Below, one piece after another: positions 2,739 to 63,880 of a DNA stretch of 64,000 nt (the first letter of the stretch is position 1; each line of letters starts with the position of its first letter). A program made the translations under genes and the position numbers. The notes under the pieces are model-generated. The model worked only from the letters and a program-made list of their open reading frames with translations, searched no databases and was not told the origin of the DNA. The stretch covers positions 2,710,273 to 2,774,272 of the forward strand of contig NZ_CP036528.1 of assembly GCF_004331915.1 (NCBI RefSeq). The letters run 5' to 3'. The DNA comes from Ureibacillus thermophilus (GTDB lineage: Bacteria > Bacillota > Bacilli > Bacillales_A > Planococcaceae).

Positions 2739-3329
2739 ATGATCTTAGTTCCTACAGTCATTGAACAAACAAACCGTGGTGAGCGTGCTTACGACATTTA
2801 TTCTCGCCTTTTAAAAGACCGTATTATTTTACTTGGCAGCCCAATTGATGATAATGTTGCAAACTCAATTGTCGCACAATTATTATTTTTAGAAGCAGAA
2901 GATCCTGATAAAGATATTTCTTTATACATCAACTCACCTGGTGGTTCCATTACAGCAGGGATGGCCATCTATGATACAATGCAATACATTAAACCAGATG
3001 TGCAAACAATATGCATCGGAATGGCAGCATCAATGGGTGCTTTCCTCCTTTCAGCTGGTGCAAAAGGAAAACGTTATGCATTGCCAAACGCAGAAGTGAT
3101 GATTCACCAGCCATTAGGCGGCGCTCAAGGTCAAGCGACTGAAATCGAAATTGCAGCAAAACGCATTTTATTCTTGCGCGATAAATTAAACAAATTGTTG
3201 GCTGATCATACGGGCCAACCAATCGAAAAAATCGCACAAGATACTGACCGCGATAACTTCATGACTGCTGAGCAAGCAAAAGAATATGGTTTAATCGACC
3301 ATATTATTTCATCCAGCGAACAAAAATAA
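2739..3329 (+). CDS. clpP: ATP-dependent Clp protease proteolytic subunit
   Basis: ClpP is the serine peptidase that forms the degradation chamber for ClpC, ClpX and ClpE in the cytoplasm. The catalytic triad falls at the canonical residues: Ser98 in GMAASMGAF, His123 in [10 protein letters not shown] and Asp172. The length of 196 residues is normal. The ATG at 2739 follows AAGGAGGACATACG. A CtsR-like operator lies over its promoter, and a strong terminator follows, so it is monocistronic. Confidence 0.98.
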
Positions 3330-3336
3330 TGTGAGA

Positions 3337-3370
3337 AACCGGGCTGTCGAAGTAGACAGCCCGGTTTTTT
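3337..3370 (+). terminator. clpP terminator
   Basis: AACCGGGCTGTC pairs perfectly with GACAGCCCGGTT across a 6-base loop and is followed by a T run. Confidence 0.9.
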
Positions 3371-3411
3371 GTGCGTCAAACAAAGCTGCCTGCAGGAAAA
3401 GTTATGCATAA

Positions 3412-60555: not shown

Positions 60556-60620
60556 TAGGATTCTACTTCAACCACACTAAAAGAAAGAGAGGTTGGGACA
60601 AAACCCCCTCTAAAATGGAA

Positions 60621-60659
60621 ACAGCCCATGAAATTTTGGAATAAAATTTCATGGGCTGT
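60621..60659 (+). terminator. Protective hairpin at the IS left end
   Basis: ACAGCCCATGAAATTTT pairs perfectly with AAAATTTCATGGGCTGT across a 5-base loop. Hairpins here often shield a transposase gene from outside transcription; that role is inferred. Confidence 0.6.
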
Positions 60660-60745
60660 TCTTCATTTTTTCAATAAAAATAAGGACATCTTCTGTTAAA
60701 ATTTAAGTATCCAACCCCAAAAATTTTAACGAAAGAAGTGTCCTT

Positions 60746-61762
60746 ATGTTTAAATATTATAACATGAATCAATTAATTTTGCCTCTAGATTTAGAAATAA
60801 AATTACAAGAAAATGATATTGCCTTCCACATTCACCATTTAGTTGAAAGTATTCCAGATGAAGCCTTCCAGCCGTTACTTGGACATCTTGGGGGAACGGA
60901 ACAGTTATTCCAAAACAGATCAAGATGCAACGTTCATGCGAATGAAAGACGACTATATGAAAAACGGTCAATTGAAGGCTGGATACAACGTATAAATCGC
61001 AACAGAAGGTCAATACGCACTGGCTTATGGCATTTTTCCAAATCCTACCGATACACGTACATTGATTCCGTTCTTGAATGAGATTGAGAAGCATTATTTT
61101 CCATTGCCAAAAATATTGTCGCAGATGCTGGTTATGGTAGTGAACAGAACTATGAGGACATCCTTTCGAATCGAAAATGTGAGGCACTTATTCCATATAC
61201 CATGTATGAGAAAGAACAAAAGAAGAAATATAAACAAAACCCATTTCATCCAGACAATTGGATGTACGACGAAGAAAGTGATACCTACACGTGTCCGAAT
61301 CAGCAGCGGGTAACCTTCCGATATCGTTCTGTACGTACCGATAAGACCGGTTTCAAACGAGAATTGAAAATCTATGAATGTGAAAACTGTTCGGGATGTC
61401 CATTCCGTTCTTCATGTACAAAAGCAAAGGAAGGCAACCACCGAAAAGTCATGGTGAATGAAAAATGGGAACGACAAAAAGAATATGTAAGAGCGAAGCT
61501 TTCAGAAGAAAAAGCAGGTTCTATTTTCCGTCAACCTAAAATGGACGTAGAACCAGTTTTTGGATTCTTGAAGGCTAATTTGCGTTTCACTCGATTTTCC
61601 GTCCGAGGCAAATCGAAGGTGGAAAATGAAATGGGGATTGCCTTAATGGCCGTGAATTTACGGAAATACACGGCCAACAAAGATCAACTGACCAAAAATA
61701 ATGGAGAGAAATGGAAAAAGGAGAATTTGAGTTGGCTCAAATTCTCCTTTTTCCTATCTTGA
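60746..61762 (+). pseudogene. Degenerate IS1182-family transposase
   Basis: The N-terminal part (MFKYYNMNQLILPLDLEIKL to about 60890) is followed, after a large internal deletion, by the C-terminal half read in shifted frames. Read in its proper frame this half gives [20 protein letters not shown], then a TAA where a Gln codon probably stood (after GYNV), then DTRTLIPFLNEIEKHYFPLP. A second frameshift leads into VADAGYGSEQNYEDILSNRK and an open stretch from 61202 to 61762 ending VNLRKYTANKDQLTKNNGEK. The zinc-like cysteines CENCSGCPFRSSC lie in that stretch. At least one deletion, one nonsense codon and one frameshift leave it inactive. Confidence 0.85.
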
Positions 61763-61772
61763 AGCTAGTTTT
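61562..61772 (+). repeat. Direct repeat, left copy (IS 3' end)
   Basis: These 211 bases match 63654-63864 with two mismatches that I saw and no indels, an offset of exactly 2092 bases. The right-hand inverted repeat GTCCCAGCCTCTC is missing after the left copy, where cargo sequence begins. Confidence 0.9.
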
Positions 61773-62178
61773 TTTTGTTGAAAAATTTAATTGTGTAAAC
61801 TATGAAATACAAAATAATGTATGGAACAATAATGTACAAAGTAATTACCAACATATCATCTTTATATTCAGCAATTTCTTCTAATAGAGTTAAAGGTCTA
61901 CCATCGTATACAATATCTTTAAAAGAAAATATGAAATGATCAACAGTCAAATCAGCGAGCATGATTATAATCAAATATGCAATGTAGATGAGTGTATTGA
62001 TAACGAATTTGAATCTTCTTTTTGAATTTATTGATTCTATCAAAATAACAAAAAATACAAAGGAAATAGCCAGCATTATGATTTCATTAAATTCAACATA
62101 CCCTGAATTATCAATCAATAATGCAAAGACTATAATAAAATTTATAACTGCCAGTATAATCAAATTTTTCTTTTTCAT
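61765..62178 (-). CDS. Cargo gene: small polytopic membrane protein
   Basis: This 137-residue protein has four hydrophobic segments and no recognised motif. The start ATG follows GAGGGG and AAAGG. Its stop codon TAG (61765-61767) is part of the IS end GAAGCTAG, so the original 3' end may have been lost at the junction. It is convergent with the transposase remnant and carries no known function. It looks more AT-rich than its neighbours. Confidence 0.6.
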   Translation of the reverse strand: MKKKNLIILAVINFIIVFALLIDNSGYVEFNEIIMLAISFVFFVILIESINSKRRFKFVINTLIYIAYLIIIMLADLTVDHFIFSFKDIVYDGRPLTLLEEIAEYKDDMLVITLYIIVPYIILYFIVYTIKFFNKKN

Positions 62179-62306
62179 CCTTTTTTCCCCTCTCCCAATA
62201 TAGTAGTTTCAATTTTAACAAAAAAAATAATTTTTAAAAAATAAAATTAGATTTTTTCAAACAATTTAAAATTTTTTACAAAATTAAGAATTTTTGGATA
62301 TTATTC

Positions 62307-62345
62307 TTTACATATAACCTAATCATTGGTATATATCGATATATA
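62307..62345 (+). promoter_or_regulatory. Promoter with palindromic -10 region
   Basis: TTTACA and TATATA are separated by 17 bases. The -10 is the left half of the perfect 16-base palindrome TATATATCGATATATA (62330-62345), which could be a repressor site. It drives the secreted-protein gene. Confidence 0.5.
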
Positions 62346-62378
62346 TGGAATTGTTTCAAAGGAATAGGGGGTATTTTG

Positions 62379-63578
62379 GTGAAGAAAAAAACATTTTTTA
62401 CTGTAGCAGTGACTGTCATCATGTTATTCAGTTTAGCTACAAATCATGCTTTTGCATGGAGTTACAGTAATTATAATTACGGATCTTATGTTCCAAAGTC
62501 GGGAACTGGTACAGCAACTACGTATTACGACTCAAGAAATTTCTTACAAACGAGAATTGATTTCAAGTTTGATAGTTATAATGTCAGCTCCATAATCAGT
62601 TACAACAAAGGCAATGGCACTGGCGGAAGCTGTCCAGGATATAATGCATATGTGACTTTGGATCAAACTGCTATTCCTGATGGTTCATCCTTAAAAATTT
62701 CCGCATGGGAGGTGCTTACTAATCTGCCAAATCCCAAAGTGGACATTGAAGATAATAATCTCTGGGGAGCTGATGATGAATCAGAAGTGGTTGCACTAGG
62801 GACTGTCGTTGCTGATAAAGCTTATTATATGACAACTAAATGGCTTGATAATCGTGGAGGTAAATCAACAGATAGCGGCAGAATTCAAGCTCAATTTGCC
62901 ATGAGCAAAAAAGGTATTTTGGACTATAACAACTGCACTCAATCTTCAACAGTACAGCACACATTCACTTATGGTGATAACCAAGGTAAAGTTGCTTCTA
63001 TTCAACCTCAAATAACAAAAAGTCTAAAAGCAGTAGCTAGTACAACTGTGCCGGTATCTAATACAACAAGTACTACAAATTCTCAATCTGACTCTCAAGT
63101 CATTACTGAATATAAAGCTATTGAACCAACAGAAGATGGGATTACAAAATATAAATCAAAACAAAAAGAGATAACTAAGAAATTAAAATCTAATAAAAAA
63201 ATTAATGACATTGCAGTCACAGTTACTTTTGCTGAACCATTAAGTTTTGATGAAGTTAAAACAATTACTGAAAAATACAATGTTAATATTGAAGAATTGG
63301 AAGCAAGATCAATAGACAGTAATGGCGACAGAATCACTCATGCTATTAAAGGATTGAACAAGTCATTATCTCAAGATGGAAGTAATTTCATAGGATATAC
63401 TAGTTTACAGGGATATGTTTCATCAGAAAATATTTTTGGTTTAGAATCAGAGGAAAAAATTTTCTTAGTTGATGCCAGTGGAGACAATAATGTAACAGAA
63501 TTAGAGAAAGACAATTTCGCAGTTCCTCTTACATGGTATTTAGAAGATTTGAATCCTGAAAAACATTTAAAGAAATAA
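62379..63578 (+). CDS. Cargo gene: secreted protein of unknown function
   Basis: The protein has 399 residues from the GTG at 62379, which follows AGGGGG. A signal peptide (TVAVTVIMLFSLATNHAFA) ends near residue 25. The mature N-terminal part (about 26-200) is rich in Tyr, Ser, Gly and Asn with two Cys (SCPGYN and NNCTQS) that may form a disulfide. A Thr/Ser-rich linker (ASTTVPVSNTTSTTNSQSDS) joins it to an alpha/beta C-terminal domain with IAVTVTFAEPLSFDEVKTIT. I recognise no family. It lies inside the IS-bounded region. Confidence 0.75.
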   Translation: MKKKTFFTVAVTVIMLFSLATNHAFAWSYSNYNYGSYVPKSGTGTATTYYDSRNFLQTRIDFKFDSYNVSSIISYNKGNGTGGSCPGYNAYVTLDQTAIPDGSSLKISAWEVLTNLPNPKVDIEDNNLWGADDESEVVALGTVVADKAYYMTTKWLDNRGGKSTDSGRIQAQFAMSKKGILDYNNCTQSSTVQHTFTYGDNQGKVASIQPQITKSLKAVASTTVPVSNTTSTTNSQSDSQVITEYKAIEPTEDGITKYKSKQKEITKKLKSNKKINDIAVTVTFAEPLSFDEVKTITEKYNVNIEELEARSIDSNGDRITHAIKGLNKSLSQDGSNFIGYTSLQGYVSSENIFGLESEEKIFLVDASGDNNVTELEKDNFAVPLTWYLEDLNPEKHLKK

Positions 63579-63653
63579 AACCTTTAATTTAAAATAAGAT
63601 TGGTTTCGACAGTTTCATTCTGTTATTTTATTTATTAAATGTGCAAAAGGACC

Positions 63654-63864
63654 GGATTCTTGAAGGCTAATTTGCGTTTCACTCGATTTTCCGTCCGAGG
63701 AAAATCGAAGGTGGAAAATGAAATGGGGATTGCCTTAATGGCCGTGAATTTACGGAAATACACGGCCAACAAAAATCAACTGACCAAAAATAATGGAGAG
63801 AAATGGAAAAAGGAGAATTTGAGTTGGCTCAAATTCTCCTTTTTCCTATCTTGAAGCTAGTTTT
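63654..63864 (+). repeat. Direct repeat, right copy (IS 3' end)
   Basis: This is a second copy of the transposase C-terminal codons and the end hairpin (GGAGAATTTGAG/CTCAAATTCTCC). It is joined at its left to unrelated sequence and at its right to the intact inverted repeat at 63860-63880. It has no start and is a fragment. Confidence 0.9.
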
Positions 63865-63880
63865 GTCCCAGCCTCTCTTT

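What the first reader, a model, noticed from the sequence alone, without database searches (positions are those of the whole stretch)
62379..63578. Unfamiliar secreted protein carried between IS ends
The protein has a clean signal peptide, a Tyr/Ser/Gly-rich N-terminal part with just two Cys, a Ser/Thr linker and an alpha/beta C-terminal domain that I cannot assign. Its promoter overlaps a perfect 16-base palindrome, so it is probably regulated. Mobile secreted proteins of unknown fold are candidates for adhesins, toxins or surface factors. The disulfide-making genes at 58.8-59.7 kb lie close by, but a link is speculative.
Basis: partly seen in the sequence, partly recalled or inferred. Interest (0 to 1): 0.6.

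Follow-up and report, generated by a model that had tools for sequence, protein, structure and literature searches.

The report
Transposon-carried secreted two-module protein
A jumping DNA element has recently carried the gene for an undescribed secreted two-part protein between heat-loving Ureibacillus species; what the protein does is unknown, but its two parts always go together and a second type of transposon carries a distant relative.

Summary
The gene at 62379-63578 is real and encodes a 399-aa protein with a signal peptide. No Pfam, NCBIfam, PHROGs, PADLOC or PDB profile matches it significantly. It is the passenger of a 3,291-bp IS1182-family unit (60587-63877) with matching terminal inverted repeats. 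Most of this cassette, including the whole gene, also occurs at other loci in U. terrenus and U. thermosphaericus: cassette 98.9-99.5% identical, gene 99.8-100%, against about 80% for sampled homologous chromosome. Relatives are scattered over Bacilli. The N module (about 26-215) and C module (about 245-399) occur fused or as two adjacent secreted or lipoprotein genes; in a 398-genome sample all 10 genomes with N also have C. A distant relative sits inside a complete Tn3-family transposon, another on a Paenibacillus plasmid. The N module is strongly constrained (dN/dS 0.05-0.08) and holds an EF-hand-like acidic loop. The C module evolves faster and distantly resembles the C-terminal domain of ECF anti-sigma regulators (below Pfam's cut-off). 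Most likely it acts outside the membrane as a Ca2+-dependent binding module plus partner domain; the ligand is unknown. The regulated-promoter and disulfide-gene links are not supported.

The parts
60587..60604 (+). Left terminal inverted repeat of the IS1182-family unit, GAGAGGTTGGGACAAAAC
   Evidence: 17 of 18 bases match the right end; the homology with U. terrenus begins here
60746..61081 (+). 5' fragment of the IS1182-family transposase gene; about 620 bp of the middle present in U. terrenus are missing here
61202..61762 (+). 3' part of the IS1182-family transposase gene
   Evidence: NF033551 E 1.5e-40, PF13751 E 5.6e-27
61562..61772 (+). Inner copy of the IS right end, without its terminal repeat
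   Evidence: 211-nt direct repeat with 63654-63864, 99%
61765..62178 (-). 137-aa hydrophobic (membrane) protein, second passenger gene, divergent; 141 aa in U. terrenus and U. thermosphaericus
   Evidence: no family match
62330..62345 (.). Perfect 16-nt palindrome TATATATCGATATATA
   Evidence: function unproven
62379..63578 (+). Secreted two-module protein, 399 aa
62379..62456 (+). Signal peptide, residues 1-26, cleavage after AFA (by eye)
   Evidence: signal-like starts also in relatives
62457..63023 (+). N module, about residues 27-215
   Evidence: Found as a separate secreted protein in several Bacilli; dN/dS 0.05-0.08 in relatives
62751..62786 (+). EF-hand-like acidic loop, residues 125-136 (DNNLWGADDESE)
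   Evidence: Most conserved stretch of the N module; metal binding is an inference
63024..63113 (+). Ser/Thr-rich linker, about residues 216-245
   Evidence: Poorly conserved
63114..63575 (+). C module, about residues 246-399
   Evidence: Separate secreted protein or lipoprotein in several Bacilli; distant resemblance to Sigma_reg_C
63654..63864 (+). Outer copy of the IS right end (transposase 3' end)
63860..63877 (-). Right terminal inverted repeat, GAGAGGCTGGGACAAAAC read on the - strand
   Evidence: the homology with U. thermosphaericus ends here

Best explanation
The finding is the passenger gene of a transporter-IS unit of the IS1182 family. An IS copy gained about 1.9 kb of passenger DNA followed by a second copy of its right end. 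The inner right end lost its terminal repeat, so the outer repeat defines a unit that moves together with the passenger; the window's own transposase gene is now broken. The passenger protein is exported and belongs to an undescribed two-module family of Bacilli. Shown: secretion signal (by sequence), module boundaries, strict pairing of the modules, recent transfer between species. Inferred: the modules form one complex outside the cytoplasmic membrane, in which the conserved N module binds Ca2+ through its EF-hand-like loop and a ligand at or near the cell surface. The faster-evolving C module is its partner (folding, tethering or relay domain), as suggested by a lipoprotein C module and by the resemblance to the extracytoplasmic domain of ECF anti-sigma regulators. 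The ligand and the benefit to the host are unknown. Confidence: about 0.9 for architecture and mobility, about 0.35 for the binding-module-plus-partner function; the score given is for the whole.
For: Terminal repeats and direct right-end copies. The unit lies between a pseudouridine synthase gene and an aldo/keto reductase gene here and at other loci in two species at 98.9-99.5% identity, gene 99.8-100%, protein 100%, against about 80% chromosomal identity: window vs G254 over 15.5 kb, G253 vs G254 over 25 kb. N and C co-occur in 10 of 10 N-positive genomes of 398 sampled, fused or adjacent. N under strong constraint. C resembles Sigma_reg_C: hhalign score 37.5, best of 200 shuffled decoys 21.7. 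A complete Tn3-family transposon with target duplication GTTAT encloses a relative.
Against: No reliable fold: single-sequence AlphaFold2 gave mean pLDDT 36.5 and 47.5. No profile or PDB match names a function. Ca2+ binding rests on a motif, and relatives differ at loop positions 1 and 3. The Sigma_reg_C similarity is below Pfam's cut-off and confident over about 41 columns only. Members are few and patchy. Divergence between the window's genome and U. terrenus was not measured directly (no overlap in the sampled stretches).
Confidence: 0.5

Rival explanations
1. A surface adhesin or matrix/envelope component: the Tyr/Ser/Gly-rich N module sticks to cells, polymers or surfaces, and the C module only helps folding or attachment. 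The transposon spreads it because it helps colonisation of compost-like habitats.
For: Secreted; strong constraint on the N module; in G905 the N module is the C-terminal end of a larger exported protein, as binding modules often are; two Cys conserved only in the WSYSNYN subgroup.
Against: No sortase signal, S-layer-homology or other anchor match; no repeats in the protein; no adhesin family match.
Confidence: 0.25
2. A secreted toxin or bacteriocin (N) with its own immunity or pro-domain (C), spread as a competition trait.
For: Mobile, patchy, two-gene organisation in many genomes; a small membrane protein is often next door.
Against: The conserved half is N, not a diversifying one; permanent fusion of toxin and immunity in the window and several others makes little sense unless the protein is cleaved; no toxin or defence model matches; no conserved catalytic set is evident in the N alignment.
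Confidence: 0.12
3. An ordinary chromosomal gene trapped by chance between IS copies; its presence in three species is vertical descent, not transfer.
For: Relatives elsewhere are not all within transposons; the window's transposase is broken.
Against: Different neighbours in all three species, homology stopping at the terminal repeats, and about 99-100% identity against about 80% chromosomal background; only 4 of 25 genomes of the genus have any member.
Confidence: 0.05

Closest known systems
Transporter IS (IS copy with passenger genes unrelated to transposition; PMC3129680), IS1182 family
   Same: IS ends enclose unrelated genes; IS1182-family transposase; unit found at different loci in different species
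   Different: Passenger is a secreted protein of no known family; the right end is duplicated and the transposase gene broken
Tn3-family transposon with passenger genes (other examples in PMC7157771 and PMC6304161, abstracts only)
   Same: The G245 relative lies between long inverted ends (about 190 bp) with a Tn3 transposase, a resolvase and a 5-bp target duplication GTTAT
   Different: That carries a relative of 26-29% identity, not the window's gene; the window's element is an IS1182 unit
Sigma_reg_C (PF13791), C-terminal domain of ECF sigma-factor regulators
   Same: The opening strand-helix-strand stretch aligns with the C module; similarity above all 200 shuffled decoys
   Different: The window protein does not match the model (best relative 22.1 bits, cut-off 25); no sigma-binding part; attached to or paired with the N module
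EF-hand-like or dockerin-like Ca2+ loops (general knowledge)
   Same: D-x-N/D-x-x-G-x-x-x-E-x-E spacing in the N module
   Different: No EF-hand family match for the protein; no helix-loop-helix shown; one loop per module

Membership tests
Transporter IS, IS1182 family | IS1182-family transposase in the unit | tested here: met
   NF033551 E 1.5e-40 on the 3' part; below the whole-protein cut-off because the gene is broken
Transporter IS, IS1182 family | Matching terminal inverted repeats enclosing transposase and passenger | tested here: met
   60587-60604 and 63860-63877, 17 of 18 bases
Transporter IS, IS1182 family | Unit at different sites, homology ending at the repeats | tested here: met
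   Left end shared with L006, right end with L007, flanks differ
Transporter IS, IS1182 family | Target-site duplication | tested here: inconclusive
   No clear duplication; A/T-rich, palindrome-like flanks
Transporter IS, IS1182 family | Movement of the whole unit by a transposase | not testable with these tools
   Inferred from distribution only
Sigma_reg_C (PF13791) | Score above the curated cut-off | tested here: not met
   No match of the window protein; best relative L030 22.1 of 25 bits
Sigma_reg_C (PF13791) | Profile similarity over the domain | tested here: inconclusive
   Probability 66-78%, score 37.5 vs 21.7 for the best of 200 decoys, confident over about 41 columns
Sigma_reg_C (PF13791) | ECF sigma-factor gene beside it | tested here: not met
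   None recognised by eye in the neighbourhoods listed; no systematic domain scan of all neighbours
Secreted protein | N-terminal signal peptide with cleavage site | tested here: met
   VKKKTFFTVAVTVIMLFSLATNHAFA read by eye; no predictor was run
Known toxin or defence protein | Match to a PADLOC, PHROGs, Pfam or NCBIfam model | tested here: not met
EF-hand-like Ca2+-binding protein | Metal bound in the loop | not testable with these tools
   Motif only

The most novel reading that the evidence does not exclude
The N and C modules are the two halves of an undescribed extracytoplasmic binding or sensing complex of Bacilli, related on the C side to anti-sigma sensor domains, and spread as a self-sufficient trait by at least two unrelated kinds of transposon.
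Probability: 0.2. Interest if true: 0.65.

Novelty: new variant of a known kind. Interest (0 to 1): 0.42.

Why it matters
The mode of travel (an IS with passenger genes) is known, but the passenger is not a resistance, toxin-antitoxin or metabolic gene. It belongs to an uncharacterised secreted family whose members have been picked up by an IS1182 unit, a Tn3 transposon and a plasmid, and whose two modules are always inherited together. That makes a concrete claim testable in harmless thermophiles: that the N and C modules form one complex, and that it gives its host a selectable benefit outside the cell.

Tried and rejected
Family searches of the window protein in Pfam, NCBIfam, PHROGs and PADLOC gave nothing above noise. 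PDB sequence searches with the protein and with the N and C profiles gave only weak, chance-like hits, such as a spider phospholipase D at E 0.55; rejected. Viral-contig, phage and plasmid searches found no close relative, so a phage origin is not supported; one 23% plasmid relative appeared. AlphaFold2 on the mature protein and on the C module alone, without an alignment because relatives from the genome search are not among the permitted inputs, gave models too poor to compare, so no fold search was run. The serine-protease hit G809 shares only the acidic loop with the N profile and was set aside as chance. A general small-membrane-protein partner was considered: a hydrophobic ORF lies next to many copies, but only two of the ones compared (L098, L017) are clearly related to each other.

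Full report
What is there. The reading frame 62379-63578 (GTG start, 399 aa) is real. The protein begins with a signal peptide (read by eye), followed by a Tyr/Ser/Gly-rich N module with two Cys, a Ser/Thr-rich linker, and a C module of mixed alpha/beta pattern. Scans against Pfam, NCBIfam, PHROGs, PADLOC and the PDB gave no significant match.

The mobile unit. The gene lies in a 3,291-bp unit, 60587-63877. Its ends are matching inverted repeats (GAGAGGTTGGGACAAAAC and GAGAGGCTGGGACAAAAC). Inside are two fragments of an IS1182-family transposase (NF033551 E 1.5e-40) and two direct copies of the IS right end, 61562-61772 and 63654-63864, 99% identical. Between these copies lie the two passenger genes: a small hydrophobic protein on the minus strand (61765-62178) and the secreted protein. 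The inner right end lacks its terminal repeat, so the outer one bounds the unit; this matches what has been called a transporter IS (PMC3129680). The unit sits between a pseudouridine synthase gene and an aldo/keto reductase gene.

Recent transfer. U. terrenus and U. thermosphaericus carry a protein identical in sequence. Window 60877-63677 is 99.5% identical to U. terrenus and 61590-63880 is 98.9% identical to U. thermosphaericus, with unrelated flanks. The gene has no difference from U. terrenus. From U. thermosphaericus it has three: two silent ones, and one in the stop codon that lengthens the reading frame there. Sampled homologous chromosome is about 80% identical (window vs U. thermosphaericus over 15.5 kb; U. 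terrenus vs U. thermosphaericus over 25 kb). Recent horizontal transfer is therefore strongly supported. In the genus only 4 of 25 genomes have any member.

The family. A two-row profile found relatives in scattered Bacilli. They show that the protein is made of two modules. These are fused in Ureibacillus, in G245, in several Paenibacillaceae-like genomes and in G441; they are separate adjacent genes, mostly each with its own signal-like start, in G598, G473, G337, G378 and G905. In G905 the N module is the C-terminal end of a larger exported protein and the C module is a lipoprotein. In G378 an IS has landed between the two genes. In G495 the N module is broken at contig ends. In the sample of 398 genomes the same 10 have N and C; one more (G486) has only a C remnant. 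Fusion plus constant adjacency is the classical sign of two parts that work together; that they touch physically is an inference.

Other vehicles. The G245 relative lies inside a Tn3-family transposon with inverted ends of about 190 bp (3211-3396 and 9411-9595 of L112), transposase, resolvase and a 5-bp target duplication GTTAT. A 23% relative lies on a 249-kb Paenibacillus plasmid, annotated as a hypothetical protein. So members of this family have been mobilised independently by different elements.

What it may do. The N module is the constrained part (dN/dS 0.05-0.08 in two pairs of relatives, against 0.17-0.83 for C). Its best-conserved stretch, DNNLWGADDESE at residues 125-136, has D, G and E at the positions of an EF-hand loop; Ca2+ binding is inferred, not shown. 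The C module resembles Sigma_reg_C, the C-terminal domain of ECF sigma-factor regulators: hhalign score 37.5, probability 66-78%, against at most 21.7 for 200 column-shuffled decoys; the N module does not. It falls below Pfam's cut-off, so it is not filed as a member. I judge an extracytoplasmic binding module with a partner domain the most likely role (about 0.35 for that function alone), ahead of adhesin (0.25) and toxin-immunity (0.12).

What was not supported. The palindrome is real but weakly surprising in an AT-rich gap (2.4% of shuffles) and not shared by relatives; the promoter scan is at chance level. The disulfide genes at 58.8-59.7 kb belong to the insertion site, since the cassette sits elsewhere in the other species.

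Limits. No fold was obtained; the structure tool could not be given the relatives' alignment, and single-sequence models were poor. Secretion is read from sequence only. Neighbouring genes of the relatives were recognised mostly by eye.

Noticed in passing
G000:C1:408769-408930, 706988-707165 and 1714955-1715422: Short MITE-like elements made of the left and right ends of the same IS1182 family side by side, besides many solo ends: about 60 matching places in this genome.
   Followed up: no
L106:5908-7211 and L113:6747-7436: G598 and G495 each carry a second, diverged C-module gene, in G598 with an N-like exported ORF directly upstream; one of these C modules gave the best single Sigma_reg_C match.
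   Followed up: partly
L103:5464-6303 and L009:1037-1399: In the two Paenibacillaceae-like genomes closest to the window protein, a PadR-like regulator (by eye) and a weak HAAS-domain membrane protein lie directly downstream; a possible envelope-stress link.
   Followed up: no
L098:7559-7897 and L017:466-846: Small membrane proteins beside the family in two different genomes are related to each other (E 4e-11); a possible third component.
   Followed up: partly
L110:8835-9910: In G378 a transposase-bearing insertion has landed between the N and C genes.
   Followed up: no
window:60886-60877 junction vs L006:3875-4495: About 620 bp of the transposase gene are missing in the window relative to U. 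terrenus, with about 10 bp of shared sequence at the junction.
   Followed up: no
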